In this document: in pieces, positions 24,752 through 64,000 of the stretch
Layout: the number at the start of each line of letters is the position of its first letter
Position numbering within the stretch: the first letter of the stretch is position 1
The notes under the pieces: generated by a model
The model's input: the letters and a program-made list of their open reading frames with translations, nothing else
Database searches by the model: none
What the model was told of the DNA's origin: nothing
Program-made: the position numbers and the translations under genes
Assembly: GCA_905221615.1 (NCBI GenBank)
Contig: CAJNDT010002846.1
Coordinates: forward strand, 1 to 64,000
DNA: 64,000 bases
Source of the DNA: Symbiodinium sp. CCMP2592
Taxonomy: Eukaryota > Sar > Dinophyceae > Suessiales > Symbiodiniaceae
Direction of reading: 5' to 3'

Positions 24752-25723
24752 GGCTGGCAATGCTGTAACTCCAGGAACCAAGCGACTAGGAGGGGTCTCC
24801 ACAGCATCCAACGGCAGCCACCCGCTGGCTCCATGTAGTGCTAGGCGCAACAGGAAGCGAGGCGGCGCAGCTCTGACTGCGCAGCTCCGCGGTCAACGCA
24901 GGATCCTCCTTTGCAGGCACACCTGCCTCCGGGTCCGAGCGAATCTTATTTCCCGTCGGGTCGTAAAGGGCACGCGGCAGGCCTGTAGTTGCAACCGGTG
25001 GCAACATGACAGTTGCGGATCTGGAGTGTCTCAACAGTGAAGACACGAAGTGCTGCAATCTCTCCAACAGAGTCGTGTGAATAGTGTCAGCAGCGATGGA
25101 ATAAAGGTAAAAAGCCCCCGGCACGGCGGCCACCAGAGATTCCCCGGAATCTGTTTGACCTCGAACCACTGTCGCAGGCGGGTCAAAATACATGTGGTCC
25201 CCAATTAACGACCGATGGTGCGTAGAGCGGAACGCACTGTATAATCTTTTGGGAGGAGGCACGCCCACCCACTTGTGCTCTCGAAGAAGGTGGAGACCAA
25301 AGCGTGGCGGTTCGGTGAACTCCAGTAGCCCGAAGACAGGGCGGTCAGTGTTAATCACGGGATAAAAAGGGCGTGCTGTGATGGGCCGGCCACTGGGCCC
25401 GCTGTGCTCAAAGTCCATACCCCGAAGGAGCAGCTGGACCGGGTAGCCGTCTTTGCCGCAGTGTGCAGCGACCGCATCACAGATCGACGGAATGCGGTTC
25501 ACCGACCACAGGTCGTAAAATTCTCGGGCAGTCTCCCTGTCGGCGGGCTTTGAAGTCCAAGCCGAGCCAGCCCACGCGCCTGGTAGAGCTCCTCCCAGAG
25601 GACGTGAGTGCGATGGAGGGAGGCATGTAGCTCTAAAGCGGCAACAATGCCCCCAATGAGAAGGGATTGGTGTAGGAAATCCACGCAAGAGCCACTAGCG
25701 TGAGGCGACCGGGGTGTGGGCAC
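24752..25723 (-). pseudogene. SF1 helicase-like gene, minus-strand copy, middle part
   Basis: Inverted copy of 20070-20985. The minus frame 25688-24786 reads FYPVINTDRPVFGLLEFTEPPRFGL, differing from the plus copy by few residues. Relative to the plus copy two internal segments are missing, corresponding to plus 19155-19368 and 19485-20060, each joined at short shared bases. The copy ends abruptly at 24752 beside the retroposon tail and lacks the C-terminal third. Confidence 0.65.
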
Positions 25724-26845: not shown

Positions 26846-28804
26846 ACACGTCACACTGCGCAAAGCGAGGTCCCACCGACAAACATGGTCAGGTTGCGGG
26901 GAAGCCCCAAGAAAAGGAGGCCACTGGCTGACAAGCAGGAGGGCAGCGATGGGGTTAAGGCGGTCGTGGCGACGTTGTGCCTTACGCTGCTTGCGGGTTT
27001 TGCCCTTGACCTTGTCAGGCACCACCAGCTCCACGAAGACTGCCAGGAGGTTGCCCTGACGAAACTCCATTCTCAGAAGGCAGCCCTCGGATGGCGGCCG
27101 ATTGCCGCTTTGGCGATGGGAGAACCAGCCAGTGTCAGGTGCTGGCGAAAAGCCACTGGTGCACGATAAGCCAAGCACGTGTGTGCCAAAGCTGAGACAG
27201 TCCTCCACCTTCAGCACCACCGGTAAGACCGGGTCGAAGCGTCTGGTGGTGTCCTGGTGCGACATCCGTCTGTTCTCCTGCCCTGTGTCCTCAAGAGCCG
27301 CGCCTTGGCTATAGACATGGAAATGCAGGAAATCCACAACGCGCTCGAGCGACAGCTCTCCGAGGGAGGTCTGGACAGGAGCAGGCAATGGCAGGCTGAC
27401 CGACCTGGCCTCCTCATAACATCTAAGCCTGACCGCCTGAATGATCCAGGTGCGCAGTTCCGCGACACAATGCGGCAGAGAGGCTGCTGTGACGGTGCGG
27501 ATGGTCCCGAGAAGGGGCGGAGGCAAAGAATCAATGGCGGCAAGCTGCCTCCACTGTGACGCGGTGTGGGAAGAGTGCATCCATTACTTTTCCAACCTCG
27601 CTATCCACAAGACCTCTGCTACGGTAAAAATGAAGGGAGTGGAAGGCCCACTCCAGTTCTTTTTCCATATTTCGCATGGGGAGGAAGGCACGTGCGGCAG
27701 AGACATCCACCTGGGCCGGTAGTGTCTGGTCAGTTCGCAGGAGCAGGTCACTGGGGCCCGAAAAGTTCGCCCGGCACATTGACTAACCAGTGCATACCGC
27801 CCACACGAATACCTGGGGCGACCAGTATGGCGGCCCGAGCAAAGTCAGCGAGCACCCAAGGGCACAAGAAGTCTTCACTCGCGTGGATGATGCGCAGCCT
27901 ACAGGGGAGGCGCAAGAGTGCTTCGAACAGCCAGTCCGGCATGCCAACGGCACCAATATGTACGGCTGCTGGCCGCGCAGCCTCATCCGTCGCTCCCCCC
28001 CCGGAGGTGGCGGTCAAGGCCACAGGAGGGAAGTAGCTGCTGCCCCATAACTTGTGAAGGAGCACTCCCACAAGGCCCGCCGTGTAGCTGCCTGCAGAGA
28101 AGCCACGGACGATGGGCCGCCCTGGGCCAACGCTTGAAAAGGCAATGCACAGGGCCGCCAGGCACGCGGAATGTGGATTGTGGATCCTGTAAGTGGGAGC
28201 TGCGTCGTGCCCTCTGGAGCTGTGTGGATATCATTCTAGCTTCCGGGCTGGAAGCAGTGAACTTGACGTCGAGCATAGCATGCGCCAGCTGGACAACCGG
28301 CAGGGGTGAGAGCAAGAGACTGGTATATCGACCCGCCGAGCTGAGCCTCGCGGATGCCGTGGCCGACAACTTGGAGAATGTCTCCGCAAGACATCCGGTG
28401 GGGCCGTAACACTGCGTGGAGCACATGAGCTGCCAGGCGTCGTTACGAGCCGGGGCGCGAAATGTGCTGGCACCGGAGCACTCAATGCGCACCTCAGCAG
28501 ACGTTGGGAGGTTGCCCACGCGATAATCGTCCTCATCCGCATGAGCTATGTCAAATCCCTTGACCGCTCGATAGAAGCAGATTGCCAGCTCTTGGTCGAT
28601 GACTTCCAGGGTCCACATGTGCTCCCCCGCGGGGGAAGGGGTGGACACCTCTGCCATCCTTCGCAACTCAGCTGCCGGTAAGAGAGCCCAGATTCTCCAC
28701 CGCGCCCATGTGCGCATGTGATACGAGAAGCGCGGCCGCGTCAAGCGGCGGAACGGGAGGACTCGTCGCGCCCCCGGCCCCTGGAAATGCTCCGGGGCTA
28801 CCAC
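26792..28804 (-). pseudogene. SF1 helicase-like gene, minus-strand copy, N-terminal extension
   Basis: Minus-strand coding continues upstream of the part shared with the plus copy (shared to ~27180). Frames 27580-26792, 27779-27531, 28071-27748 and 28804-27983 each contain good coding stretches (MHSSHTASQWRQLAAIDSLP; MRNMEKELEWAFHSLHFYRS; HIGAVGMPDWLFEALLRLPC; HMWTLEVIDQELAICFYRAV). They follow one another in order, with at least three frame changes. The start is not certain; 28804 is the most upstream ATG of the first frame. No domain is recognised. It supplies the N-terminus that the plus copy lacks. Confidence 0.55.
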
Positions 28805-41636: not shown

Positions 41637-41821
41637 ATAGGGGCCTATATATTTACTAACATTATTCTGGGGGTTCCTTTTCATAGGAATAGTATAATGG
41701 GCGCCAAAACCCTATTCTAGTTATTAAGGCCTCTATACTACCGTACCCTTGTAGATCCCTTCTAGTAACCCTTATAGACTCCTTTATAGGAACCCCTGTT
41801 CTAATTATTAAGGCCCCTATA
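41637..41821. mobile_element. AT-rich TIR element adjoining the array
   Basis: The left end ATAGGGGCCTATATATTTA and the right end TAATTATTAAGGCCCCTATA are inverted copies, with GGGGGTTCC inside the left arm and GGAACCCC inside the right. The Tc1-like array begins exactly at its right end, which provides the TA target. Confidence 0.65.
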
Positions 41822-42068
41822 CATCGGGAGGACGAAAGTTTTGACCTACTGGGCCTTTCTTGTCTTAAAGCATCTTGCGGAGTAGCGGAGTAGCGACAAG
41901 TGCGATTTACGTGGCCTGGCCAGCGGAGTATTTTCTACCCCGTTTTAAAATTATACTACTTTAATGTTCCGGAGGAATGGCCGGTGGGTCCTGTGCGCTA
42001 GGAGTCTACAGGGGAATGGGGGCCTGTCTTGGACGAAACAAGGAATTCAAACTTTCGTCCTACCGTAG
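41822..42068. repeat. B block 1 with iterons and Tc1-like ends
   Basis: This block carries inverted ends and three perfect GCGGAGTA repeats at 41877-41884, 41885-41892 and 41933-41940, two adjacent and one 41 bases on, as Rep-binding iterons often are. An AT-rich core (TTTTAAAATTATACTACTTTAA) follows. Its right end is altered (GGAATTCAAAC instead of GGAATAGGTCAAAC), making it 3 bases shorter than the other blocks. Confidence 0.85.
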
Positions 42069-42124
42069 CGTGAATTTTGAGTGCCAGAGTCCGCCCTAAG
42101 CAGCTGGTGAAACTTCTCAGGACC

Positions 42125-43296
42125 TCAGCCCCGTGCCATGCCCCCCTTCTTGGCAATGACTTCTTTACAAGTCTTGCGAAAACTAGCCGCGATGTTGCCC
42201 GCGACTGTCTGTGCTCTCTCGGAAGCGAGAACGGCACGTACTCGGGCCTTGAAGGCTGTCACGCCTGGAACAGGCCTCTTTCGACGGAGGTCTTCCCGGT
42301 CTTTCTCATGGAGACGCCGCCGAAGCCAAGCCCACATTTGCTCTACAGGGTTGAGGTCCGGAGACTTGGCCGGCACACGCCACAGTGCGATGCCCTCGTC
42401 TGCCATCGCACGCTTGCTCGCAGCCGTGTGCAAGAAGGACTCATTGTCACACAGAACCTTCCACGGGCCATCCGGTTTGCACGGCTCCAGTGCGCGAATG
42501 GCTGCGGTCAACTTGCCCTTGTGGACCAGGCCGCACCACTCCGCGGATGTGAGCTTTCGTGCCTTGTGGAAGGTGATGACACTGAAGCCACCCTCAGACA
42601 GGCCACCCCACAAAGGGACGATGCGAGCCTGTGGGATCTGCTGCGGGTACGGGTCGTCGCCCGCCAGCTTCTCCACGCCAGCTTCCCCCCGTTTGCGCCA
42701 CATGTGGCCGCCACCGTAGGCGCAGTAGTTCGCCCTGTCCGTGGCATCCTTCGGCGGCACTGCCAGGACGACGCCATCCATGGAGAGAGAAAGCTTCTCT
42801 CGCAGCTCTGCCTTCGTCAATCGCACCACGGCCTTGGCAAATGCCAGTCGCTCCTGCTTCCGCTGCTTGCTGTACTTTCGCTTCTGTGCCTTGGGCAACC
42901 AGTGAAAGCCATTCTTGTTCAGAATTTTCCGGATTGTGGGACATCGAGGGTGATCCCTTTGGCTGCTGTCACCTCTCGCTGCAGCGTGGTAGCCGTGCAT
43001 GTGCACTGCAGGCGCAGAGCCAGCAATCTTTGCACAAGGAACTTCTCAACGGTCTTGGTTGCCTTCGTGGGCTTCTGACCGCAGTTCTGGTACTTGTAGA
43101 CTCGCTGACCACGCTGCTGACTGAAGCCTTTGCAGAGGCGCTGCAGCTGAGACACCGAAGGCATTCCACCCTGCAGGTTTCTCACCTGCCCACGGATGTG
43201 CTCCCAGGTACAGCCGGTGTGACGAAGCAGAACCGCTTTCCGCTCATTGCTGAAGTCAAGCGACTTCGGGTGCCTGACCTCCTGGACCAGCGGCAT
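42125..43296 (-). pseudogene. Tc1/mariner-type transposase, copy 1 (frameshifted)
   Basis: Same gene as at 45683-46855, but one A is missing near 42939 (GTGGGACATC instead of GTGGAGACATC). This splits it into an N-terminal frame (43296-42919, DNA-binding part) and a C-terminal frame (43006-42125, catalytic part with all three acidic residues). The rest is virtually identical to the other copies, so the lesion is recent and this copy cannot make full-length enzyme. Confidence 0.9.
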
Positions 43297-43853
43297 GGCT
43301 TCAAGTCTTCGTGGCTGCGGCAGAAACAGAGCGATGTAGATAAGAGTTAAGTTCGCTAGTCAGCTAGTCTGCAGCTGCAGCGGCGGTTGTTGCCTAGTGG
43401 CCAGCATCCGCTGGACAGTGCGACGAGGTCGTGTCGAGTGCATCGTACTACGGAAGAGCTGTCAAAGCCTGTCTGTGTGTATCAGAGAGGGAAGCCAAGC
43501 CTGATCTGCTTGGTGTACCTGCGATCGAGATGGCAACCAGGCCAAGCCAAAAACCTGGCATGTCGAAAGAGTAAATCGCTCTAGCTACTCCCACCATGGA
43601 GTTTGCAAGTGTGTGTGTGTGTGTGCTTTTCCTTCTTTCTCTCCCACCCCACGCCGTGTAAGGCTCCTTCTTTCTCTCCCATCCCATGCCGTCTAAGGCG
43701 ACCAGACCGCCCGCAGTTGCAAGCTGGAGCCCTCTTAAGTTGTCTTCAAGTCGAAGGGTCGACTTCACCTGTGCAGTAGCAGACACCCTGCTTCCGTCCT
43801 TTTTCCGGCAGAAGATGCCTAGAACTGCATTGGCCGTGAAACGTGTCTAGAGC

Positions 43854-45272
43854 CTAGAGCTGGCCGAGGATGTCAGGAAAGTTCAGGAGGACTCGATTGC
43901 TAGGGTGCTTCAACCAGTCATGTGTGTCCAGGAAGTCTAGGTTGCGTGTGCTCTTGTTGATGGTTACTGCGATGGGAACAGCGAAGAGGTACTTGCTGTA
44001 AGCACACGTCCCACCAGGGGTAGTTGCAAACTCCACTCTGGCATCATACTTCCCTTGCATCTTGTCTTGCTGTTCAGACAGGAATGCAAGGTCTCGAACA
44101 TCATCCAGAATGATGCCGTCGTGCACCCGTCTGTCAAAGCTTCGCATGGCTTCGGGAAACACCTGCAGGCTTCCCACTTTCAGTTCCAATGGCTTCCTGA
44201 AAAGGGACTTGACCCACTCTGTCTTCCCGGTCTGTGAGGCACCCAAGACTACCAGGAGCGGGTACCGAAGCCGGTCCTCTTTAAAAGTGCCGAGCCACGC
44301 TTGGGCTTCTGGAACCAGAGGGAACGGCTGGTACAACTCTGGGTTGGAGCGTAGCCGGGCGGTGTTGGCCTCTATGACGGCGTGCTCTGCGGCTGCTTCC
44401 TCATGCTCGCGCACTGCGTCCAAGTTCCGCTTGCGGGCCAGCACCCCGTCGCGTGTGAGGTAGAGGTAGTCCTCGTACCGTTCTGTGGAGAGCTTCCGCT
44501 GCTTCCACAAGGTTTCGGGCCACTTACCCAGCACCTGGTACGTCATGGCCGCCTTGGTCCAGCATGGCTCGTAGTTGCCGGCCACGCAGAGGCCTCCAGC
44601 AGCCAGGCGCACCGTTCCGAGCTTCTCTGCCCACACGTAAAACATGCCCCGGTTGATGGACTGCTGGAGCTTCTTGCGGCACCAGCCTTCTCCGAGGTAG
44701 TCGTGGGGGCTAGCGTTGGGGCGTGTGCCTTCAAAGGAGAAGCGGCTGGTCCCACAGTCCACGGCAGACCTGAACTGCAGCATCAGGTGCAGGTGGCAGG
44801 TCCCTGAAGCGTTTTGCTCCATGGTCGCCGACCAGTGTTGCACATTCCAGGTGGCCACTTGCCCTTCCACGAACTGCAAGAAACGCTGCCAGGTTGCGGC
44901 GCTGTCTGTCAGGAGCCAGCTCTGGTAGGTCAGCAGGACTGCGACGGAGCGTACACGAAAGCCGTCGCAGGCGGGAGCCAGCGCAGCTGCGGCTGCTGCG
45001 GGTGCTTGGCTTGCCTGGGCCGGCCGGCCCCTGCCCTTGGAGTTCGTGGTAGCGGTGAGCCAAGCATCCCTTGCAGCGTTCAAGCGCTGTGCATCGGCGG
45101 CAGCGCCGCCTTTGTCTGGATGCACACGTCGTGTTACCCGGCGAAAGGCCTTGGTGACCTCGTCGTCACTCGCCTCCCGTGCCAGCTTCAAGTCCAGGCC
45201 GTAGGCTGCTGCAAGAGACAGCAGCACGGAGACGAGGACACGCTTCGCCCGCTGCAAGGCGCTCACCGGCAT
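43854..45272 (-). CDS. J-domain/HUH-Rep/SF3-helicase protein, copy 1
   Basis: Intact 472-codon copy of the protein described at 47425-48843, differing at residue 395 (Leu instead of Ile, just after Walker B). It lies upstream of the broken transposase of the same unit, so this unit still encodes Rep. Its start ATG follows a CCTTTTTAAAGG box 82 bases upstream (45354-45365), between the gene and B block 2. Confidence 0.93.
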   Translation of the reverse strand: MPVSALQRAKRVLVSVLLSLAAAYGLDLKLAREASDDEVTKAFRRVTRRVHPDKGGAAADAQRLNAARDAWLTATTNSKGRGRPAQASQAPAAAAAALAPACDGFRVRSVAVLLTYQSWLLTDSAATWQRFLQFVEGQVATWNVQHWSATMEQNASGTCHLHLMLQFRSAVDCGTSRFSFEGTRPNASPHDYLGEGWCRKKLQQSINRGMFYVWAEKLGTVRLAAGGLCVAGNYEPCWTKAAMTYQVLGKWPETLWKQRKLSTERYEDYLYLTRDGVLARKRNLDAVREHEEAAAEHAVIEANTARLRSNPELYQPFPLVPEAQAWLGTFKEDRLRYPLLVVLGASQTGKTEWVKSLFRKPLELKVGSLQVFPEAMRSFDRRVHDGIILDDVRDLAFLSEQQDKMQGKYDARVEFATTPGGTCAYSKYLFAVPIAVTINKSTRNLDFLDTHDWLKHPSNRVLLNFPDILGQL

Positions 45273-45353
45273 GACCTCTGGCTAGAGTGAGTCTTCCTCA
45301 TCCTCAAGCCAAACATCAACAGATCAGGCGCATGCTGTAGCGCAGGATTTACT

Positions 45354-45365
45354 CCTTTAAAAAGG
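45354..45365 (-). promoter_or_regulatory. T-rich/TATA-like box upstream of Rep copy 1
   Basis: The minus strand reads CCTTTTTAAAGG 82 bases upstream of the Rep ATG, also present at 48925-48936 and 52498-52509. Dinoflagellate promoters are reported to use a TTTT-type box rather than TATA, so this is a reasonable promoter candidate; position is the only evidence. Confidence 0.35.
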
Positions 45366-45376
45366 TCGCGGTGAGG

Positions 45377-45626
45377 CATCGGGAGGACGAAAGTTTTGAC
45401 CTACTGGGCCTTTCTTGTCTTAAAGCATCTTGCGGAGTAGCGGAGTAGCGACAAGTGCGATTTACGTGGCCTGGCCAGCGGAGTATTTTCTACCCCGTTT
45501 TAAAATTATACTACTTTAATGTTCCGGAGGAATGGCCGGTGGGTCCTGTGCGCTAGGAGTCTACAGGGGAATGGGGGCCTGTCTTGGACGAAACAAGGAA
45601 TAGGTCAAACTTTCGTCCTACCGTAG
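45377..45626. repeat. B block 2
   Basis: 250-base copy with both inverted ends intact, internal to the array. Preceded by GCGGTGAGG and followed by CGTGAATTTT, i.e. no TA. Confidence 0.9.
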
Positions 45627-45682
45627 CGTGAATTTTGAGTGCCAGAGTCCGCCCTAAGCAGCTGGTGAAACTTCTCAGGACC

Positions 45683-46855
45683 TCAGCCCCGTGCCATGCC
45701 CCCCTTCTTGGCAATGACTTCTTTACAAGTCTTGCGAAAACTAGCCGCGATGTTGCCCGCGACTGTCTGTGCTCTCTCGGAAGCGAGAACGGCACGTACT
45801 CGGGCCTTGAAGGCTGTCACGCCTGGAACAGGCCTCTTTCGACGGAGGTCTTCCCGGTCTTTCTCATGGAGACGCCGCCGAAGCCAAGCCCACATTTGCT
45901 CTACAGGGTTGAGGTCCGGAGACTTGGCCGGCACACGCCACAGTGCGATGCCCTCGTCTGCCATCGCACGCTTGCTCGCAGCCGTGTGCAAGAAGGACTC
46001 ATTGTCACACAGAACCTTCCACGGGCCATCCGGTTTGCACGGCTCCAGTGCGCGAATGGCTGCGGTCAACTTGCCCTTGTGGACCAGGCCGCACCACTCC
46101 GCGGATGTGAGCTTTCGTGCCTTGTGGAAGGTGATGACACTGAAGCCACCCTCAGACAGGCCACCCCACAAAGGGACGATGCGAGCCTGTGGGATCTGCT
46201 GCGGGTACGGGTCGTCGCCCGCCAGCTTCTCCACGCCAGCTTCCCCCCGTTTGCGCCACATGTGGCCGCCACCGTAGGCGCAGTAGTTCGCCCTGTCCGT
46301 GGCATCCTTCGGCGGCACTGCCAGGACGACGCCATCCATGGAGAGAGAAAGCTTCTCTCGCAGCTCTGCCTTCGTCAATCGCACCACGGCCTTGGCAAAT
46401 GCCAGTCGCTCCTGCTTCCGCTGCTTGCTGTACTTTCGCTTCTGTGCCTTGGGCAACCAGTGAAAGCCATTCTTGTTCAGAATTTTCCGGATTGTGGAGA
46501 CATCGAGGGTGATCCCTTTGGCTGCTGTCACCTCTCGCTGCAGCGTGGTAGCCGTGCATGTGCACTGCAGGCGCAGAGCCAGCAATCTTTGCACAAGGAA
46601 CTTCTCAACGGTCTTGGTTGCCTTCGTGGGCTTCTGACCGCAGTTCTGGTACTTGTAGACTCGCTGACCACGCTGCTGACTGAAGCCTTTGCAGAGGCGC
46701 TGCAGCTGAGACACCGAAGGCATTCCACCCTGCAGGTTTCTCACCTGCCCACGGATGTGCTCCCAGGTACATCCGGTGTGACGAAGCAGAACCGCTTTCC
46801 GCTCATTGCTGAAGTCAAGCGACTTCGGGTGCCTGACCTCCTGGACCAGCGGCAT
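45683..46855 (-). CDS. Tc1/mariner-type DD34E transposase, copy 2
   Basis: 390 residues. The N-terminal ~120 residues include an HTH-like region (SNERKAVLLRHTGCTWEHIR; MPSVSQLQRLCKGFSQ) expected to bind the inverted ends. The catalytic DDE core has D174 (LSLSMDGVV), D284 (KVLCDNESF) and E319 (SPDLNPVEQMW), with 34 residues between D284 and E319. SPDLNPVE is the classic Tc1/mariner/IS630 signature. The enzyme would cut at the B-block ends and insert at TA, which the TA-flanked array shows. The start at 46855 gives a complete N-terminus and is shared with copy 3. The gene sits 569 bases downstream of Rep on the same strand. A 424-codon antisense ORF covers it and is a shadow. Confidence 0.92.
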   Translation of the reverse strand: MPLVQEVRHPKSLDFSNERKAVLLRHTGCTWEHIRGQVRNLQGGMPSVSQLQRLCKGFSQQRGQRVYKYQNCGQKPTKATKTVEKFLVQRLLALRLQCTCTATTLQREVTAAKGITLDVSTIRKILNKNGFHWLPKAQKRKYSKQRKQERLAFAKAVVRLTKAELREKLSLSMDGVVLAVPPKDATDRANYCAYGGGHMWRKRGEAGVEKLAGDDPYPQQIPQARIVPLWGGLSEGGFSVITFHKARKLTSAEWCGLVHKGKLTAAIRALEPCKPDGPWKVLCDNESFLHTAASKRAMADEGIALWRVPAKSPDLNPVEQMWAWLRRRLHEKDREDLRRKRPVPGVTAFKARVRAVLASERAQTVAGNIAASFRKTCKEVIAKKGGMARG

Positions 46856-47160
46856 GGCTTCAAGTCTTCGTGGCTGCGGCAGAAACAGAGCGATGTAGAT
46901 AAGAGTTAAGTTCGCTAGTCAGCTAGTCTGCAGCTGCAGCGGCGGTTGTTGCCTAGTGGCCAGCATCCGCTGGACAGTGCGACGAGGTCGTGTCGAGTGC
47001 ATCGTACTACGGAAGAGCTGTCAAAGCCTGTCTGTGTGTATCAGAGAGGGAAGCCAAGCCTGATCTGCTTGGTGTACCTGCGATCGAGATGGCAACCAGG
47101 CCAAGCCAAAAACCTGGCATGTCGAAAGAGTAAATCGCTCTAGCCTTTCCCACCATGGAG

Positions 47161-47198
<38 letters not shown>

Positions 47199-47424
47199 TT
47201 TCCTTCTTTCTCTCCCACCCCACGCCGTGTAAGGCTCCTTCTTTCTCTCCCATCCCATGCCGTCTAAGGCGACCAGACCGCCCGCAGTTGCAAGCTGGAG
47301 CCCTCTTAAGTTGTCTTCAAGTCGAAGGGTCGACTTCACCTGTGCAGTAGCAGACACCCTGCTTCCGTCCTTTTTCCGGCAGAAGATGCCTAGAACTGCA
47401 TTGGCCGTGAAACGTGTCTAGAGC

Positions 47425-48843
47425 CTAGAGCTGGCCGAGGATGTCAGGAAAGTTCAGGAGGACTCGATTGCTAGGGTGCTTCAACCAGTCATGTGTGTCC
47501 AGGAAGTCTAGGTTGCGTGTGCTCTTGTTGATGGTTACTGCGATGGGAACAGCGAAGAGGTACTTGCTGTAAGCACACGTCCCACCAGGGGTAGTTGCAA
47601 ACTCCACTCTGGCATCATACTTCCCTTGCATCTTGTCTTGCTGTTCAGACAGGAATGCAATGTCTCGAACATCATCCAGAATGATGCCGTCGTGCACCCG
47701 TCTGTCAAAGCTTCGCATGGCTTCGGGAAACACCTGCAGGCTTCCCACTTTCAGTTCCAATGGCTTCCTGAAAAGGGACTTGACCCACTCTGTCTTCCCG
47801 GTCTGTGAGGCACCCAAGACTACCAGGAGCGGGTACCGAAGCCGGTCCTCTTTAAAAGTGCCGAGCCACGCTTGGGCTTCTGGAACCAGAGGGAACGGCT
47901 GGTACAACTCTGGGTTGGAGCGTAGCCGGGCGGTGTTGGCCTCTATGACGGCGTGCTCTGCGGCTGCTTCCTCATGCTCGCGCACTGCGTCCAAGTTCCG
48001 CTTGCGGGCCAGCACCCCGTCGCGTGTGAGGTAGAGGTAGTCCTCGTACCGTTCTGTGGAGAGCTTCCGCTGCTTCCACAAGGTTTCGGGCCACTTACCC
48101 AGCACCTGGTACGTCATGGCCGCCTTGGTCCAGCATGGCTCGTAGTTGCCGGCCACGCAGAGGCCTCCAGCAGCCAGGCGCACCGTTCCGAGCTTCTCTG
48201 CCCACACGTAAAACATGCCCCGGTTGATGGACTGCTGGAGCTTCTTGCGGCACCAGCCTTCTCCGAGGTAGTCGTGGGGGCTAGCGTTGGGGCGTGTGCC
48301 TTCAAAGGAGAAGCGGCTGGTCCCACAGTCCACGGCAGACCTGAACTGCAGCATCAGGTGCAGGTGGCAGGTCCCTGAAGCGTTTTGCTCCATGGTCGCC
48401 GACCAGTGTTGCACATTCCAGGTGGCCACTTGCCCTTCCACGAACTGCAAGAAACGCTGCCAGGTTGCGGCGCTGTCTGTCAGGAGCCAGCTCTGGTAGG
48501 TCAGCAGGACTGCGACGGAGCGTACACGAAAGCCGTCGCAGGCGGGAGCCAGCGCAGCTGCGGCTGCTGCGGGTGCTTGGCTTGCCTGGGCCGGCCGGCC
48601 CCTGCCCTTGGAGTTCGTGGTAGCGGTGAGCCAAGCATCCCTTGCAGCGTTCAAGCGCTGTGCATCGGCGGCAGCGCCGCCTTTGTCTGGATGCACACGT
48701 CGTGTTACCCGGCGAAAGGCCTTGGTGACCTCGTCGTCACTCGCCTCCCGTGCCAGCTTCAAGTCCAGGCCGTAGGCTGCTGCAAGAGACAGCAGCACGG
48801 AGACGAGGACACGCTTCGCCCGCTGCAAGGCGCTCACCGGCAT
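47425..48843 (-). CDS. J-domain/HUH-Rep/SF3-helicase fusion protein, copy 2
   Basis: 472 residues. Residues ~22-75 form a J domain: amphipathic helix DDEVTKAFRRVTRRV, the HPD loop (HPDKGG, 51-56), then helix AQRLNAARDAWLT; it should recruit and stimulate Hsp70. An Ala-rich linker follows. The HUH nuclease has motif I VLLTYQS (112-118), motif II HLHLMLQF (160-167) and a candidate motif III tyrosine Y212 (MFYVWAEK), where Lys is at +5 rather than the usual +3. The SF3 helicase has Walker A GASQTGKT (344-351), Walker B GIILDD (386-391) and motif C VPIAVTINKS ending near Asn439. Together these would nick an origin, unwind it and start rolling-circle replication. The domains match eukaryotic CRESS-DNA virus and plasmid Reps, with an added J domain. 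All motifs look intact. Confidence 0.93.
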   Translation of the reverse strand: MPVSALQRAKRVLVSVLLSLAAAYGLDLKLAREASDDEVTKAFRRVTRRVHPDKGGAAADAQRLNAARDAWLTATTNSKGRGRPAQASQAPAAAAAALAPACDGFRVRSVAVLLTYQSWLLTDSAATWQRFLQFVEGQVATWNVQHWSATMEQNASGTCHLHLMLQFRSAVDCGTSRFSFEGTRPNASPHDYLGEGWCRKKLQQSINRGMFYVWAEKLGTVRLAAGGLCVAGNYEPCWTKAAMTYQVLGKWPETLWKQRKLSTERYEDYLYLTRDGVLARKRNLDAVREHEEAAAEHAVIEANTARLRSNPELYQPFPLVPEAQAWLGTFKEDRLRYPLLVVLGASQTGKTEWVKSLFRKPLELKVGSLQVFPEAMRSFDRRVHDGIILDDVRDIAFLSEQQDKMQGKYDARVEFATTPGGTCAYSKYLFAVPIAVTINKSTRNLDFLDTHDWLKHPSNRVLLNFPDILGQL

Positions 48844-48924
48844 GACCTCTGGCTAGAGTGAGTCTTCCTCATCCTCAAGCCAAACATCAACAGATCAGGC
48901 GCATGCTGTAGCGCAGGATTTACT

Positions 48925-48936
48925 CCTTTAAAAAGG
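48925..48936 (-). promoter_or_regulatory. T-rich/TATA-like box upstream of Rep copy 2
   Basis: CCTTTTTAAAGG on the minus strand, same position relative to Rep as in the other units. Confidence 0.35.
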
Positions 48937-48947
48937 TCGCGGTGAGG

Positions 48948-49197
48948 CATCGGGAGGACGAAAGTTTTGACCTACTGGGCCTTTCTTGTCTTAAAGCATC
49001 TTGCGGAGTAGCGGAGTAGCGACAAGTGCGATTTACGTGGCCTGGCCAGCGGAGTATTTTCTACCCCGTTTTAAAATTATACTACTTTAATGTTCCGGAG
49101 GAGTGGCCGGTGGGTCCTGTGCGCTAGGAGTCTACAGGGGAATGGGGGCCTGTCTTGGACGAAACAAGGAATAGGTCAAACTTTCGTCCTACCGTAG
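48948..49197. repeat. B block 3
   Basis: 250-base copy, internal to the array, differing from block 2 by single bases (e.g. GGAGTGGCC). Confidence 0.9.
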
Positions 49198-49253
49198 CGT
49201 GAATTTTGAGTGCCAGAGTCCGCCCTCAGCAGCTGGTGAAACTTCTCAGGACC

Positions 49254-50426
49254 TCAGCCCCGTGCCATGCCCCCCTTCTTGGCAATGACTTCTTTACAAG
49301 TCTTGCGAAAACTAGCCGCGATGTTGCCCGCGACTGTCTGTGCTCTCTCGGAAGCGAGAACGGCACGTACTCGGGCCTTGAAGGCTGTCACGCCTGGAAC
49401 AGGCCTCTTTCGACGGAGGTCTTCCCGGTCTTTCTCATGGAGACGCCGCCGAAGCCAAGCCCACATTTGCTCTACAGGGTTGAGGTCCGGAGACTTGGCC
49501 GGCACACGCCACAGTGCGATGCCCTCGTCTGCCATCGCACGCTTGCTCGCAGCCGTGTGCAAGAAGGACTCATTGTCACACAGAACCTTCCACGGGCCAT
49601 CCGGTTTGCACGGCTCCAGTGCGCGAATGGCTGCGGTCAACTTGCCCTTGTGGACCAGGCCGCACCACTCCGCGGATGTGAGCTTTCGTGCCTTGTGGAA
49701 GGTGATGACACTGAAGCCACCCTCAGACAGGCCACCCCACAAAGGGACGATGCGAGCCTGTGGGATCTGCTGCGGGTACGGGTCGTCGCCCGCCAGCTTC
49801 TCCACGCCAGCTTCCCCCCGTTTGCGCCACATGTGGCCGCCACCGTAGGCGCAGTAGTTCGCCCTGTCCGTGGCATCCTTCGGCGGCACTGCCAGGACGA
49901 CGCCATCCATGGAGAGAGAAAGCTTCTCTCGCAGCTCTGCCTTCGTCAATCGCACCACGGCCTTGGCAAATGCCAGTCGCTCCTGCTTCCGCTGCTTGCT
50001 GTACTTTCGCTTCTGTGCCTTGGGCAACCAGTGAAAGCCATTCTTGTTCAGAATTTTCCGGATTGTGGAGACATCGAGGGTGATCCCTTTGGCTGCTGTC
50101 ACCTCTCGCTGCAGCGTGGTAGCCGTGCATGTGCACTGCAGGCGCAGAGCCAGCAATCTTTGCACAAGGAACTTCTCAACGGTCTTGGTTGCCTTCGTGG
50201 GCTTCTGACCGCAGTTCTGGTACTTGTAGACTCGCTGACCACGCTGCTGACTGAAGCCTTTGCAGAGGCGCTGCAGCTGAGACACCGAAGGCATTCCACC
50301 CTGCAGGTTTCTCACCTGCCCACGGATGTGCTCCCAGGTACATCCGGTGTGACGAAGCAGAACCGCTTTCCGCTCATTGCTGAAGTCAAGCGACTTCGGG
50401 TGCCTGACCTCCTGGACCAGCGGCAT
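49254..50426 (-). CDS. Tc1/mariner-type DD34E transposase, copy 3
   Basis: 390 residues, identical in protein sequence to copy 2 as far as I can see, with D174, D284 and E319 all present. It follows Rep copy 3 on the minus strand across a (GT)n-containing spacer that is slightly longer than in the other units. This unit is intact for both genes. Confidence 0.92.
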   Translation of the reverse strand: MPLVQEVRHPKSLDFSNERKAVLLRHTGCTWEHIRGQVRNLQGGMPSVSQLQRLCKGFSQQRGQRVYKYQNCGQKPTKATKTVEKFLVQRLLALRLQCTCTATTLQREVTAAKGITLDVSTIRKILNKNGFHWLPKAQKRKYSKQRKQERLAFAKAVVRLTKAELREKLSLSMDGVVLAVPPKDATDRANYCAYGGGHMWRKRGEAGVEKLAGDDPYPQQIPQARIVPLWGGLSEGGFSVITFHKARKLTSAEWCGLVHKGKLTAAIRALEPCKPDGPWKVLCDNESFLHTAASKRAMADEGIALWRVPAKSPDLNPVEQMWAWLRRRLHEKDREDLRRKRPVPGVTAFKARVRAVLASERAQTVAGNIAASFRKTCKEVIAKKGGMARG

Positions 50427-50731
50427 GGCTTCAAGTCTTCGTGGCTGCGGCAGAAACAGAGCGATGTAGATAAGAGTTAAGTTCGCTAGTCAGCTAGTCT
50501 GCAGCTGCAGCGGCGGTTGTTGCCTAGTGGCCAGCATCCGCTGGACAGTGCGACGAGGTCGTGTCGAGTGCATCGTACTACGGAAGAGCTGTCAAAGCCT
50601 GTCTGTGTGTATCAGAGAGGGAAGCCAAGCCTGATCTGCTTGGTGTACCTGCGATCGAGATGGCAACCAGGCCAAGCCAAAAACCTGGCATGTCGAAAGA
50701 GTAAATCTCTCTAGCCTTTCCCACCATGGAG

Positions 50732-50771
<40 letters not shown>

Positions 50772-50997
50772 TTTCCTTCTTTCTCTCCCACCCCACGCCG
50801 TGTAAGGCTCCTTCTTTCTCTCCCATCCCATGCCGTCTAAGGCGACCAGACCGCCCGCAGTTGCAAGCTGGAGCCCTCTTAAGTTGTCTTCAAGTCGAAG
50901 GGTCGACTTCACCTGTGCAGTAGCAGACACCCTGCTTCCGTCCTTTTTCCGGCAGAAGATGCCTAGAACTGCATTGGCCGTGAAACGTGTCTAGAGC

Positions 50998-52416
50998 CTA
51001 GAGCTGGCCGAGGATGTCAGGAAAGTTCAGGAGGACTCGATTGCTAGGGTGCTTCAACCAGTCATGTGTGTCCAGGAAGTCTAGGTTGCGTGTGCTCTTG
51101 TTGATGGTTACTGCGATGGGAACAGCGAAGAGGTACTTGCTGTAAGCACACGTCCCACCAGGGGTAGTTGCAAACTCCACTCTGGCATCATACTTCCCTT
51201 GCATCTTGTCTTGCTGTTCAGACAGGAATGCAATGTCTCGAACATCATCCAGAATGATGCCGTCGTGCACCCGTCTGTCAAAGCTTCGCATGGCTTCGGG
51301 AAACACCTGCAGGCTTCCCACTTTCAGTTCCAATGGCTTCCTGAAAAGGGACTTGACCCACTCTGTCTTCCCGGTCTGTGAGGCACCCAAGACTACCAGG
51401 AGCGGGTACCGAAGCCGGTCCTCTTTAAAAGTGCCGAGGCACGCTTGGGCTTCTGGAACCAGAGGGAACGGCTGGTACAACTCTGGGTTGGAGCGTAGCC
51501 GGGCGGTGTTGGCCTCTATGACGGCGTGCTCTGCGGCTGCTTCCTCATGCTCGCGCACTGCGTCCAAGTTCCGCTTGCGGGCCAGCACCCCGTCGCGTGT
51601 GAGGTAGAGGTAGTCCTCGTACCGTTCTGTGGAGAGCTTCCGCTGCTTCCACAAGGTTTCGGGCCACTTACCCAGCACCTGGTACGTCATGGCCGCCTTG
51701 GTCCAGCATGGCTCGTAATTGCCGGCCACGCAGAGGCCTCCAGCAGCCAGGCGCACCGTTCCGAGCTTCTCTGCCCACACGTAAAACATGCCCCGGTTGA
51801 TGGACTGCTGGAGCTTCTTGCGGCACCAGCCTTCTCCGAGGTAGTCGTGGGGGCTAGCGTTGGGGCGTGTGCCTTCAAAGGAGAAGCGGCTGGTCCCACA
51901 GTCCACGGCAGACCTGAACTGCAGCATCAGGTGCAGGTGGCAGGTCCCTGAAGCGTTTTGCTCCATGGTCGCCGACCAGTGTTGCACATTCCAGGTGGCC
52001 ACTTGCCCTTCCACGAACTGCAAGAAACGCTGCCAGGTTGCGGCGCTGTCTGTCAGGAGCCAGCTCTGGTAGGTCAGCAGGACTGCGACGGAGCGTACAC
52101 GAAAGCCGTCGCAGGCGGGAGCCAGCGCAGCTGCGGCTGCTGCGGGTGCTTGGCTTGCCTGGGCCGGCCGGCCCCTGCCCTTGGAGTTCGTGGTAGCGGT
52201 GAGCCAAGCATCCCTTGCAGCGTTCAAGCGCTGTGCATCGGCGGCAGCGCCGCCTTTGTCTGGATGCACACGTCGTGTTACCCGGCGAAAGGCCTTGGTG
52301 ACCTCGTCGTCACTCGCCTCCCGTGCCAGCTTCAAGTCCAGGCCGTAGGCTGCTGCAAGAGACAGCAGCACGGAGACGAGGACACGCTTCGCCCGCTGCA
52401 AGGCGCTCACCGGCAT
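50998..52416 (-). CDS. J-domain/HUH-Rep/SF3-helicase protein, copy 3
   Basis: 472 residues. It differs from copy 2 by Trp326 to Cys (EAQACLG), between the nuclease and the SF3 P-loop, outside any recognised motif. J, HUH and SF3 motifs are all intact. Its upstream region runs into B block 4 at the end of the array. Confidence 0.93.
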   Translation of the reverse strand: MPVSALQRAKRVLVSVLLSLAAAYGLDLKLAREASDDEVTKAFRRVTRRVHPDKGGAAADAQRLNAARDAWLTATTNSKGRGRPAQASQAPAAAAAALAPACDGFRVRSVAVLLTYQSWLLTDSAATWQRFLQFVEGQVATWNVQHWSATMEQNASGTCHLHLMLQFRSAVDCGTSRFSFEGTRPNASPHDYLGEGWCRKKLQQSINRGMFYVWAEKLGTVRLAAGGLCVAGNYEPCWTKAAMTYQVLGKWPETLWKQRKLSTERYEDYLYLTRDGVLARKRNLDAVREHEEAAAEHAVIEANTARLRSNPELYQPFPLVPEAQACLGTFKEDRLRYPLLVVLGASQTGKTEWVKSLFRKPLELKVGSLQVFPEAMRSFDRRVHDGIILDDVRDIAFLSEQQDKMQGKYDARVEFATTPGGTCAYSKYLFAVPIAVTINKSTRNLDFLDTHDWLKHPSNRVLLNFPDILGQL

Positions 52417-52497
52417 GACCTCTGGCTAGAGTGAGTCTTCCTCATCCTCAAGCCAAACATCAACAGATCAGGCGCATGCTGTAGCGCAGGATTTACT

Positions 52498-52509
52498 CCT
52501 TTAAAAAGG
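52498..52509 (-). promoter_or_regulatory. T-rich/TATA-like box upstream of Rep copy 3
   Basis: CCTTTTTAAAGG on the minus strand, 82 bases before the Rep start. Confidence 0.35.
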
Positions 52510-52520
52510 TCGCGGTGAGG

Positions 52521-52770
52521 CATCGGGAGGACGAAAGTTTTGACCTACTGGGCCTTTCTTGTCTTAAAGCATCTTGCGGAGTAGCGGAGTAGCGACAAGT
52601 GCGATTTACGTGGCCTGGCCAGCGGAGTATTTTCTACCCCGTTTTAAAATTATACTACTTTAATGTTCCGGAGGAGTAGCCGGTGGGTCCTGTGCGCTAG
52701 GAGTCTACAGGGGAATGGGGGCCTGTCTTGGACGAAACAAGGAATAGGTCAAACTTTCGTCCTACCGTAG
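52521..52770. repeat. B block 4, right end of the array
   Basis: 250-base copy ending CGTCCTACCGTAG, then TA and unrelated DNA. It defines the right terminus. Confidence 0.9.
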
Positions 52771-52772
52771 TA

Positions 52773-59264: not shown

Positions 59265-59311
59265 GAATAGCGCTCCTAGGACCTAGTTGTTGGCTGTAGC
59301 CTCCTTGTTCG

Positions 59312-61945
59312 ATGTCGACCTGCGGTCCCACGAGTTTTTACAGTACTTGGCAGCACGATGGCGTTCCTCAACCTCCCAACGATCCCCCCGAAGATCACGG
59401 TGATGGCGTAGACAGTGATGCTAGGCCTGATCCAGCTAGAGCTCCTCGAGGTGACGAACATGATGCTGCACAGGGCTACGCGGCTCCGGGCACTACCTGG
59501 GGCAAGTGGAGTGAAGGCCAGCGGTCAAGCTGGTGGGGTCACTCCTGGGGTGATGCTGATCCAAACTGGAATAGATCTGGGTGGGCTCAGAACTCTGGCA
59601 ATGGTCAGCATTGGGATCCTCGCTGGCAAGACTGGCGTGGATGGGGCTCGGCTTCTACAGGATCCGGATCAGGAGACGGGAACTGCTACGATAGGGACTC
59701 CAAGGACTCGGGGACCGAGCCCTGGGGACGATTTGTTTCTGCAGGAGATTCGCGTGGAATCCAGGACGGTTCTCAAGTCGGAGGATGGGGTCCTGCTACT
59801 GATGCTCAAGGCAAAGGGTTCCACGGGAGACCGAGCGAAGGGGGCCGAGGCCCTTCGGAGAAGATGATTGTACCGAGTTTCTCCGGCAGCACCGGAGATC
59901 AAGGCGATGATATCGGCACATCTGCCCGGTCGTACCTACGCCAGGTCTCGGCATGGCGTCGCATGACGAGGATGTCGGTGGACCAACAGGGCTTGACCCT
60001 GTATCAACACCTCACGGACAAGGCGTGGATCGATGCAGAACGCTTGGATGTCGATAGACTGGCGACCAAGGAAGGTGTGGACTACCTCATCGCTTGGATC
60101 AAGGACCGATACCTCGATGTGCAGGTGACGCAGATAGGCCGAAGCCTGTCAGGCTTCTTCCGTGGCCTTCATAGAAAGGCCAACCAGTCGGTGCGGGACT
60201 ACATGGCGGAGTTCGACCGAGCATTCGCCCGATTGGGCGAAGTGGGATGCCATCTACCTGATGTGGCAGCAGCGTGGGTTTTCGTAGACAGGATGGGACT
60301 TGAGGAGCAAGCGGAGTTGAACCTCTTAGCTTCGGTGGGGAACCAGTACTCGTTGAAGTCATTGCAGCAAGCAGCTATCGTACATGACAGAGGCCTCCGC
60401 AAACCTTGGGAAACCCAGAACCGAGCTCCCCGCAAAGAGTGGACCCCGAAGAAAGCTTTCACCGCGAACATGGCAGCCATCGATGAGGAAGGTCCCGATG
60501 GTGGCGCCGAAGACGAGTTCCTCCTGGACCAGGACAGTCATGACTGTGTTTCGGAAGATGTTGCGGAAAACCTCTACCATGCGTACATGACACATGAAAC
60601 GGCCAAGGCCAAATACCGCGAAAACATGAAACTTCGAGGAAGCGATCCCAACTCCTTGAAACAGTTGGCCATGGACAAGCTCCGCGTGGCTAAGTCGAAG
60701 AGCTTCTGTGCAGGATGTAGACGTAGAGGACATTGGCACAAAGACGCAGAATGTCCTTTGAACAAGGGCACCACCAATGGAAACGGCTCAGGCACTGCTA
60801 CGACGACCCCGCCGAAGGAGACGGTGAAGCCCAGCTATCCTTGCCACGTGGTTCATGTCACGTGGGAGATCACCGGCGGCTCTCCGCAGGAACTTCTAGC
60901 TATCACAGATACAGCGTGTTCTCGATCCGTTGCAGGAGCTGGATGGATCGACCTCTACCTGACTGAGGCACGCCGCCTCGGCTGTGAACCTATGTTCGTG
61001 CAGTGCGGAGAAGCTTTTCGTTTCGGGGCTTCAAGGGTTTTCACGGCGACCTACGGTGTGATCTTGTGTTTCGAGCTCGGGAGCAAGAAGGTCTGTCTTA
61101 AAGTCGCAGTCGTCAATGGTGAAGTTCCACTTCTTGTATCGAGGCCAGCCTTAGGCAAGATGGGAATGATCATCGATGTAGAGAACAATTCCGCCTCGTT
61201 CCGTGTGCTGGATGTACGCGACATGGCACTCCAGATCACCGATACAGGTCATCCCGCCTTTCCTGTACATCCTGCGGTCATCCCGAAGTCATCCGCAGCC
61301 GCTCCGAATTGGGAGTCGACTGAGATCAAGATCTTCTCGCTGAATGAGCAATACATGGCATGCACCGCGGGGCTATCTTCGGTTTCGGAATTGAGCACTT
61401 CAGAAAGTCGGATTGATGACAGGGACGTTGGTTGCTCTACTAGCTGGATGGTGAGTTCACAGGTTTTCGACTCGACCGCAAGCCCCACTTCAGACCCTCA
61501 CGAAGATCATTCAGGTAACAAAACCAACTTTGAGTACGTGTTCTACCCTAAGAAGATCGGCAGCGCCGCAAAGAATCACTTTCTCGATGAGAAGTTCAAT
61601 CCCGAAACCTTCGCAACATGGTGGTCCTCAACAAAGATTTCGAATGACTTCTGGGTGGAGAACGAAGAACTACTTGTACGTGTTCATGTAGTGCCAAGGA
61701 GATCTTTCTTTAGTCCTCTTCATTGGAGAACAACTGATGTACCCCGTAAACACTCTCTCCTTCGAAGCCTTGGAGCTGTGCGCACGGTCCATGCGATCTC
61801 TTGTAAGACCATGCGAGAGTTTCCAGCTACACACGGCATGTGGGAGAATGACAGTGATGATACGCAGTTGCCGATGCTTTGGGTCGGCAGGACTGTCTTT
61901 CGTAGACGAAGGCTGATGCCCGCCCCTTCTTCGTGCTCCTTGCAA
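59312..61945 (+). pseudogene. Copia-type element 2: gag and aspartic protease
   Basis: From ATG 59312 the frame encodes a Gly/Trp-rich N-terminus, a retrotransposon gag core (~residues 190-370: SARSYLRQVSAWRRMTRMSV, RSLSGFFRGLHRKANQSVRDYMAEFDRAF), a zinc knuckle C-x2-C-x4-H-x6-C (residues ~466-481) and a retropepsin with the catalytic triplet Asp-Thr-Ala at 533-535 (AITDTACSRS). A flap-like segment (PLLVSRPALGKMGMIIDV) follows near 610. Gag would form the particle and protease would mature it. The frame runs on to 63664, but from ~61945 it is not the coding frame: SAP-like sequence appears in the frame starting 61953. A frameshift therefore ends the credible product near 61945. Confidence 0.75.
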
Positions 61946-61952
61946 CCTCGCG

Positions 61953-62783
61953 ATGGCACTCAGGTCCGACTTGCTGACGGCCCCGATGGTTTCGCGACCA
62001 AAGACTCTCTCCGAGTTCACGAAGGCCGAGCTGATCGAGGAAGCCACGGCCCGGAACCTGTGGTTCCATCCGACGTGGACGGTGACAGAAATCCGGTCCC
62101 TGATTCAGGAAGACCGGAGGAACCCCTCGGGCAACCACCCAGCGGACGCCGGGATGAGCAAGCTCACCCTGGAACAGCTGAAGGAGAGAGCCATGGAGAA
62201 AGGGTACCACCTCCCGCCGTACGCCACCAAGGGCACGATCATGCGCATCCTACGAGACCAGGCGGGAATGGGCCCTCAATCGATCCTCACCTTCGGCCGG
62301 TTCAAAGGCAAGATGTTCAAGGAGACTCCGGAGAGCTATCGCACTTGGGCTCTCAAAGAGGTGACCTCTCACGACAATCCGTCAGAGGACCTGGTGATGT
62401 TCGCCAACTGGTGGCGCGAGGAGATGCACCGATGGAGAGAGTCGCCGAATCGCAAGGCGACCCCGGACACGGAGATCTACTTGGACCCCGAGGAGCACGC
62501 GACGATTCCGTACATCGAGGACGCAACCTCCACCACGTCGTGGGACATGGTGAACCGCGAGACGGAGTACCCAGGAGCGCTTCCCAAGGCTCTCCCCGGG
62601 AGTTCGTCACTACAGGCACCCAGGACACCGCCGAGACGCAGGGGACCCGAAGCAGTGGTGGCACCAACCCCCACGACTATGGACCAGGACCTGCCGCCGG
62701 ATGTGACGGACGAGGTGAAGTACCTGGAGGAGAGGCTGGCAATCTTGAAAGACCGTCACGGCCTTCCCCCGGGAAGGAACTGA
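61953..62783 (+). pseudogene. Copia-type element 2: SAP-like segment
   Basis: A 276-codon frame with two tandem helix-loop-helix SAP-like units (LSEFTKAELIEEATARNLWF... and SKLTLEQLKERAMEKGYHLP), as in DNA-binding SAP domains. Next comes TFGRFKGKMFKETPESYRTW, which resembles the FGKYKG...PE-YL-W core of the DUF3820/QSregVF family. An acidic/Pro-rich tail ends at 62783, where coding resumes in the original frame. The order suggests a DNA- or chromatin-targeting part of the polyprotein; function is inferred. Confidence 0.5.
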
Positions 62784-64000
62784 ACCCACTCGAGCTGTAC
62801 GAGGACTACGACGAGGACTACGACGAGGTGTACTTCGAGTGCGACGAAGAAAAGGCGGACTTCCTCTCGAACCAGGCGCAAGCGACGAAGGGCAATGAGT
62901 ACCCCGGGCACGGCGATGATGAGGAGACGGACCAGGAGCTGGATGTGTACGTAGAAGGCATGAAAGTCCCGGACGTCTTCTACCAGACCAATATGAACTC
63001 TGGCGGCAGTGGGGACGTAGTCCAACGTGAGCCCCCTGGAGTAAGCAGACGACAACGTGTCCGAGACTGCGAGGAGTGTGCCAAGGACAAGATGAAGAAC
63101 AAAGCCTTCGACTACAGCGACCTCCTCACCGTGGTACGCCTTCTTCCTCTTCGCAGATTACGCACCGGGAAAGCGCTGAAGCGAGGAGGCGGTCTTCCTT
63201 TTCACTACTTCATTGCCGGAATGTACACCCACGGACCCTTCGTCGGAGTGACCAAGAGCGGGAAGGAGCTTCCATGGACGATCAAGTACATTAACTCCTT
63301 TGTTAGGGCCCAAGGTGTGGGGGAGTGGACGTCTTTTGCGATCTTCCGCAACACGGCGACCGAGTGCCACACCGACACCCACAACATGGCCGGCACCCAC
63401 ATCAAGACGGTGAGCTTCGGCGAGTTCACAGGTGGCGAACTGTGGATTCATGGAGAAGCTCCAGAAGGGCAAGGTGGGAGAACAGTGAGCCGACAAGGCC
63501 CAGACGGAGAACAGCGGCTTGGCTACATCGTTGACACTAAGGAAGGTCTTCAGCTTCGACGGGAAGGCGCTGCACGCAACGCAACCCTGGGAAGGCGAAC
63601 GATGGGCTTTGTCTTGCTACACGACCAGGGGCTACACCAAAGGCACGATCGAGATGCGAGATGAACTACGTGAATTACGTTTTCCGTTGCGAGGGATCCC
63701 CATTCACGATGAGCCAGGACAATCAAAAGAAGACGCCAAGGATCGATCCTACAGGCCACCAAAAAGCATCAGGAAGGGCCTGTGGAAGAAGGCTTCCAGG
63801 TTGGCGGCTTTGACTGCGTGGTGTACGGCGGCGGCTTCTACATGTGTGTATGAAGAATATCCCCTTGGACGAGGACAAGGAGCTGTTTCTCTTTTCGAGA
63901 TTGGTGGTTACGAGAAGACCATCGAGATCACGGACCTCGATTACCTCGTTGCGGAACCCTACGCCTACGACTTCCATGCTGAGGACAATCGATCCGAACT
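62784..64000 (+). pseudogene. Copia-type element 2: 2OG-Fe(II)-oxygenase-like domain, runs off the window
   Basis: From 62784 to ~63545 the frame of the gag ORF is coding again: acidic linker, then CEECAKDKMKNKAFDYSDLL, then a domain with ECHTDTHN (H-x-D codons 63368-63376) and FTGGELWIHGE. Coding then shifts to the frame beginning 63546: FDGKALHATQPWEGERWALS, with His at 63573-63575 and Arg nine residues later (63600-63602). H-x-D...H...R is the metal and 2-oxoglutarate ligand set of Fe(II)/2OG dioxygenases, and GGELW fits TET/JBP-like members. The second frame stays open to the window end (…EKTIEITDLDYLVAEPYAYD). Integrase and RT are presumably beyond the window. A break at ~63545 separates the iron ligands. 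Confidence 0.55.

What the first reader, a model, noticed from the sequence alone, without database searches (positions are those of the whole stretch)
41822..52770. A replicon that is also a transposon: J-Rep-SF3 protein and DD34E transposase in a TA-flanked tandem array
Each 3.57-kb B-U unit encodes a rolling-circle Rep and a Tc1/mariner transposase on the same strand, with an iteron-bearing B block between units. Head-to-tail arrays are what rolling-circle replication or circle integration produces, and the TA-flanked inverted outer ends are what Tc1/mariner produces. Proposed model: a circular B-U replicon is amplified to a concatemer by Rep, and the transposase then inserts (B-U)nB using the outermost B ends. 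Rep proteins and Tc1 transposases are each well known; this combination in one element is not one I know to be described.
Basis: partly seen in the sequence, partly recalled or inferred. Interest (0 to 1): 0.97.

Follow-up and report, generated by a model that had tools for sequence, protein, structure and literature searches.

The report
Transposon carrying a virus-like replication gene
In a coral-symbiont alga's genome there is a family of jumping genes that carries both a cut-and-paste transposase and a virus-type replication protein, sits in the chromosomes as head-to-tail arrays, and appears to be the source of some of the alga's satellite DNA.

Summary
In detail: 41822-52770 is (B-U)3-B, flanked by TA, with a J-HUH-SF3-like Rep and a DD34E Tc1-type transposase in every U (the transposase frame is broken in the first). 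It is not a one-off. The same genome holds solo B, B-U-B, a deletion derivative, diverged Rep-transposase relatives, and 477/733-bp satellite arrays that reuse B and its junctions. Of 33 outer ends read, 30 abut TA. Two satellite arrays have one edge at an inner repeat's (B') end, again at TA, so arrays seem to insert as arrays. Chimeric gene models show Rep-transposase head-to-tail order in Symbiodinium natans, S. necroappetens and Polarella. B carries three iterons conserved in diverged copies, so B looks like a combined origin and transposon end. Best reading: a Tc1/mariner element with a Rep-driven circular or concatemeric phase, the direct B repeats allowing replicational release as in geminivirus tandem clones. 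Replication itself is inferred; homologous recombination between Bs remains a serious rival. The pairing has a precedent: a Rep-plus-transposase element was reported in truffle in 2011 (PMC3198968). Not met there or in my searches: intact genes, TA duplication, origin-plus-end modules, arrays.

The parts
41820..41821 (.). TA target-site copy, left
   Evidence: sequence
41822..42068 (+). B1: end-plus-origin module (247 bp, 3-bp deletion near its right end)
41877..41930 (-). three iterons TACTCCGC (GCGGAGTA on +) in B1; by offset from B3 (49003-49056) also B2 45432-45485 and B4 52576-52629
42125..43296 (-). transposase of unit 1, frame broken (ORFs 42125-43006 and 42919-43296)
43854..45272 (-). 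Rep (J-HUH-SF3-like), unit 1, 472 aa
45377..45626 (+). B2
45683..46855 (-). transposase, unit 2, 390 aa, DDE_3 and HTH_Tnp_Tc3_2 both above the Pfam cut-off
47425..48843 (-). Rep, unit 2, 472 aa; J domain about 28-78, HUH about 105-246, AAA+/SF3-like about 315-469
48948..49197 (+). B3
49254..50426 (-). transposase, unit 3, 390 aa
50998..52416 (-). Rep, unit 3, 472 aa
52521..52770 (+). B4, identical to a solo B on another contig (L009)
52637..52673 (-). candidate nick-site stem-loop with TAGTATAAT in the loop; weak by energy in B, better in B'
52771..52772 (.). TA target-site copy, right
   Evidence: sequence

Best explanation
It is a Tc1/mariner-type transposon family of dinoflagellates that has joined with a CRESS-type rolling-circle replicon. 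The repeated block B is a two-purpose module: its ends are the transposase's inverted repeats and its middle (iterons plus a candidate stem-loop) is the likely Rep origin. A chromosomal copy is at least B-U-B, two direct origins around the genes, the layout from which geminivirus Reps release unit circles by replication. Proposed cycle: Rep nicks B and releases a one-B circle (inferred); rolling-circle copying makes tandem multimers (inferred); the transposase inserts at TA any stretch bounded by two outward ends, so B alone, B-U-B, (B-U)nB and trimmed arrays all appear (products shown, reaction inferred). Small non-autonomous units that keep B and the ends of U are carried along and form satellite arrays (arrays shown, route inferred).
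Against: No circle, nick or replication product was seen. No relative in IMG/VR. The stem-loop in B is no more stable than shuffles (z 0.60). The third single-unit element, C5194 (L035), has two Bs that differ by 4 substitutions and two indels. B4 is identical to a solo B elsewhere (L009) and differs from B1 at 5 alignment columns, so B copies within an array are not always the closest. Inner Bs lack TA, and whether the transposase cuts there is unknown. One array edge (C291a) and both ends of L020 show no TA.
Confidence: 0.56

Rival explanations
1. A composite DNA transposon plus ordinary homologous recombination. B-U-B moves by the transposase; recombination between the two Bs leaves solo B (like solo LTRs) and unequal crossing-over between Bs grows arrays and satellites. 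Rep is a passenger or serves some other purpose.
For: Explains solo B, B-U-B and (B-U)nB, all with TA, with no circular phase. U1-U2-U3 differences are additive, as local duplication could give. Gene conversion can make the two Bs of one element identical, and in one of three elements they are not.
Against: Does not explain why Rep is kept beside the transposase across about 60-78% protein identity and in other species, or iteron conservation in B. Array edges cut exactly at inner B' ends and abutting TA need transposition of array pieces in any case.
Confidence: 0.32
2. Chance nesting: an endogenous CRESS-like Rep gene and a Tc1 element happen to lie together in one amplified satellite unit.
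For: Each gene family has many relatives on its own (416 Rep and 177 transposase hits, 8000 candidates scored each), and many listed hits sit on short contigs where linkage cannot be read.
Against: Same order and strand in L039 and L040, with a related B at the outer end next to TA, and in gene models of S. natans, S. necroappetens and Polarella. Long contigs of equal length hold both genes in 3 cases.
Confidence: 0.03
3. Assembly artefact: one B-U-B expanded by the assembler.
For: Near-identical repeats of 3.6 kb are hard to assemble.
Against: Units differ from each other at several sites; arrays of other unit sizes and tandem order in other species' gene models. The exact n of 3 is not independently verified.
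Confidence: 0.04

Closest known systems
Geminivirus-like transposon of Tuber melanosporum (Liu et al. 2011, PMC3198968; passages and section 8 read)
   Same: Rep-like gene and transposase ORFs within one repeated element that has terminal inverted repeats
   Different: [quoted passage not shown] no arrays, direct end repeats or origin module are described in the section read. Sequences were not compared here.
Tc1/mariner superfamily (Sleeping Beauty type)
   Same: DD34E catalytic region, Tc3-type HTH, inverted ends, TA on both sides
   Different: Extra Rep gene, 250-bp direct repeats at both ends each holding both inverted ends, arrays
CRESS-DNA virus Reps (geminiviruses, genomoviruses, redondoviruses)
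   Same: HUH endonuclease fold followed by an SF3-like helicase fold; iterons in the presumed origin
   Different: Added N-terminal J domain; no capsid gene recognised; sits in a chromosomal TA-flanked element
Polyomavirus large T antigen
   Same: J domain, then an origin-binding domain, then SF3 helicase, in that order (T-antigen order recalled)
   Different: HUH part resembles geminivirus Rep; no close sequence match (J-domain hits E 0.06-0.09)
Teratorn (PMC5601938; listing and start of abstract seen only)
   Same: A DNA transposon fused with a virus
   Different: piggyBac with a herpesvirus, 180 kb; no rolling-circle Rep (last point recalled)
Geminivirus tandem clones and replicational release (PMC3187698 and PMC2585570; passages read)
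   Same: Two direct origins flank one genome copy, from which unit circles are released by replication
   Different: Those are laboratory constructs or concatemers, not natural transposons

Membership tests
Tc1/mariner transposon | DDE triad with DD34 spacing | tested here: met
   D174, D284, E319 invariant in 25 rows; aligned with SB100X E 3.1e-12
Tc1/mariner transposon | Tc1/Tc3-type DNA-binding HTH | tested here: met
   PF01498 32.5 bits against cut-off 31.5
Tc1/mariner transposon | TA target-site duplication | tested here: met
   30 of 33 outer ends read abut TA; no empty site was available
Tc1/mariner transposon | terminal inverted repeats | tested here: met
   17 of 20 end positions match ungapped; 17-nt arms 94%
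CRESS-DNA Rep | HUH endonuclease domain | tested here: met
   [not shown]
CRESS-DNA Rep | catalytic tyrosine motif III | tested here: inconclusive
   Y212 and K217 invariant but spaced wider than the usual YxxK (recalled)
CRESS-DNA Rep | SF3 helicase | tested here: inconclusive
   Walker A GxxxxGKT-like stretch and following acidic motif conserved; T-antigen helicases and other AAA+ proteins are tied in Z
Cressdnaviricota virus | capsid gene and circular ssDNA genome | tested here: inconclusive
   Only the Rep and transposase ORFs were scanned and recognised in U; circles not testable; no relative in IMG/VR
Helitron | HUH with SF1 (Pif1-like) helicase and no target-site duplication (recalled) | tested here: not met
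   TA at the ends; no Pif1 match among the Pfam hits at E up to 1
Tuber geminivirus-like transposon | Rep, transposase, 37-bp TIR, no TSD | tested here: not met
   TA duplication present here; sequences not compared

The most novel reading that the evidence does not exclude
A Tc1/mariner transposon with a replicative phase: chromosomal B-U-B is a natural partial dimer that Rep converts to circles, rolling-circle copying yields concatemers, and the transposase inserts whole concatemers at TA using any outward pair of ends. Parasitic minicircles that keep only B and the ends of U are amplified the same way and become the host's satellite DNA in a single step.
Probability: 0.44. Interest if true: 0.93.

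Novelty: new variant of a known kind. Interest (0 to 1): 0.85.

Why it matters
Small cut-and-paste transposons of this type are not known, as far as I recall, to carry a working replication engine. An element that couples a rolling-circle Rep with a Tc1 transposase would give a direct route from mobile element to satellite array and a living intermediate between ssDNA replicons and DNA transposons. Relatives occur in several Symbiodinium species and in Polarella, so it can be tested in cultured algae.

Tried and rejected
Free virus: two scans of IMG/VR, one with the window's Rep and one with the alignment A1, found no relative, so a circular viral form could not be shown. RNA families: no match in the window at the gathering scores. 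Stem-loop in B: not more stable than shuffles; the B' of the 733-bp unit folds better (-8.2 kcal/mol) and that of L038 less so (-3.9; no shuffles run), so I call it a candidate. Two of the three segments folded were cut or placed poorly and were redone. Equal contig lengths of Rep and transposase hits: 6 coincidences against a mean of 2.1 under shifted lengths (up to 7), so only the three long contigs (165512, 501074, 573099) are used (119 Rep and 120 transposase lengths, the listed hits only). The 477-bp unit looks like the 733-bp unit with B' gone and three bases left, as a transposase footprint might leave, but a three-base microhomology explains it as well (own reading of the sequences); not used. 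The head-to-tail B|B joint in L025 lacks two end bases, as a closed excised circle might, but it is one case. VIA-align did not list the J domain among its 50 rows; Foldseek and Pfam did. PHROGs gave only weak J-domain and transposase-region matches of unknown function. Papers: ten searches, judged from their listings; none listed shows by title or abstract start this dinoflagellate element. Three papers were opened (PMC3198968, PMC3187698, PMC2585570), in passages or one section. By the tool's note, most subscription papers are missing.

Full report
What is there. The window is bases 1-64000 of contig C2846 (799,360 bp) of a 1.1-Gb genome. The host is probably Symbiodinium sp. CCMP2592: the hit P0130 bears that name and its contig length, 111,684, equals that of C936 of this genome; this is an inference. 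At 41822-52770 lie four B blocks and three U units, (B-U)3-B, with TA on both outer sides. On the minus strand each U reads Rep, then transposase. Units differ by 4 to 9 substitutions plus a GT-repeat length difference and a single-base gap. Unit 1 has a frameshifted transposase.

B is a module. Both B ends are inverted repeats (17 of 20 positions). Inside are three GCGGAGTA repeats. In B', a copy about a quarter to a third different, the three repeats are unchanged; in L038 they are unchanged too, and in L039/L040 two of the three are GCGGAGA-type with the same spacing to within a base. A stem-loop with TAGTATAAT or AGTATTAT in the loop lies beside the iterons; it is weak in B and better in B'.

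Forms in the genome. Of the eight solo B loci fetched, seven read TA|CATCGGG...|TA and one (L020) does not. L012 on C558 is a single B-U-B with TA at both ends; its two Bs are identical and carry two changes not seen in the other 12 Bs compared; its Rep frame is broken and its transposase open. C5194 (L035) holds a B-U-B with most of U deleted, TA at both ends; its two Bs differ from each other by 4 substitutions and two indels. The same deletion derivative lies inside the C4595 array. Arrays of 477- and 733-bp units (L018, L019, L021-L027) have spacers which, in the two units read out, start CGTCAATTTTGGGTGCCAGAGTCC and end GGTCCCGGTGAGG, near copies of the two ends of U; the 733-bp unit is the 477-bp unit plus an inverted B'. 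Of eight array edges read, seven abut TA. On C260 one edge is the left end of B' and the other the left end of B; on C1446 one is the right end of B and the other the right end of B', all four at TA. Growth in place from a B-u-B would leave B at both edges, so pieces of arrays appear to be inserted as such. The count of outer ends is window 2 of 2, L012 2 of 2, L035 2 of 2, solo B 14 of 16, array edges 7 of 8, diverged relatives 3 of 3, together 30 of 33. In the loci L009-L030 and the window, B ends with the exact end sequence are in one of two states, TA or the exact U junction, in 93 of 94 (left) and 101 of 102 (right) cases. Genome-wide, 267 exact left ends exist and 22 follow TA.

Other families and species. 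A search with 600 bp of U found 11 places, all scored: the window's three, C558, the two deletion derivatives, and five diverged ones. A diverged family in the same genome (L039 on C1424, L040 on C3890; Rep 62-78% and transposase 58-65% identical over the matched parts) keeps the order Rep, transposase, B2, with B2 abutting TA. L038 has the transposase end and a B' abutting TA; L041 has pieces of both genes but no B in the stretch held, and L037 only a transposase piece. On C1424 two B2 copies in the same direction stand 2408 bp apart; one is the query itself and the other scores the same full 457 bits. B2 also occurs at spacings of about 460, 501, 538, 549, 815 and 1378 bp (40 of 212 candidates scored). 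Gene models that run across unit borders show the tandem order elsewhere: transposase-Rep-transposase in S. natans (P0241) and Polarella (P0242), Rep-transposase-Rep in S. necroappetens (P0024), Rep-transposase-Rep-transposase in pieces in Polarella (P0249), Rep-transposase in P0014, P0243, P0244 and, as a Rep fragment, P0130, and Rep-Rep in Polarella P0002 and P0020; P0126 and P0127 hold transposase alone (12 proteins examined, chosen for length, domains or contig length). Gene models can be chimeric, but here the order itself is the evidence. Polarella is in another family of Suessiales.

How it may work. The direct Bs put two presumed origins around one copy of the genes. Geminivirus genomes are released as unit circles from just such tandem copies (passages in PMC3187698 and PMC2585570). 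A circle has one B, so a cycle through it would make the two Bs of a fresh insertion identical, as seen in two of the three single-unit elements; the third is either older or a case against. A one-B circle can only give solo B by transposition; B-U-B and longer forms need multimers, which rolling-circle copying would supply. Shown: anatomy, TA, recurrence, selection on both genes. Inferred: nicking, circles, multimers, choice of ends. The recombination rival explains most of the forms but not the retention of Rep and iterons.

Known or new. The truffle element in PMC3198968 is the nearest precedent (section 8 read) and removes the claim that the pairing was undescribed. Intact genes, TA duplication, the origin-plus-end module, arrays inserted as arrays and the link to satellites were not met in the papers listed by my ten searches. 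I file it as a new variant of a known kind.

Noticed in passing
17670-27180: Large imperfect inverted repeat, arms about 92-97% alike (pieces between 17670-20928 and 24813-27180); two long open frames there that I tested match no Pfam family at E 0.001.
   Followed up: partly
8207-10700: A roughly 1.54-kb tandem duplication holding short arrays of AATAGTGCCCG and its complement.
   Followed up: no
2551-6180: Open frame of 1209 aa with a copia-type reverse transcriptase domain (RVT_2, E 1.3e-21).
   Followed up: partly
59300-63664: Open frame of 1454 aa with a CxxC...H...C-like stretch that looks gag-like (own reading); no Pfam match at E 0.001.
   Followed up: partly
L025:6706-7203: Two Bs joined directly head to tail with the last two bases of one missing.
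   Followed up: partly
L011:3816-4065: A solo B inserted inside a TA-dinucleotide repeat.
   Followed up: no
L024/L026, 733-bp units: B' sits in the spacer in inverted orientation with its own diverged ends, which also serve as array edges at TA.
   Followed up: yes
P0002, P0020 (Polarella): Gene models with Rep repeated two or three times without transposase between, perhaps Rep-only arrays or skipped exons.
   Followed up: no
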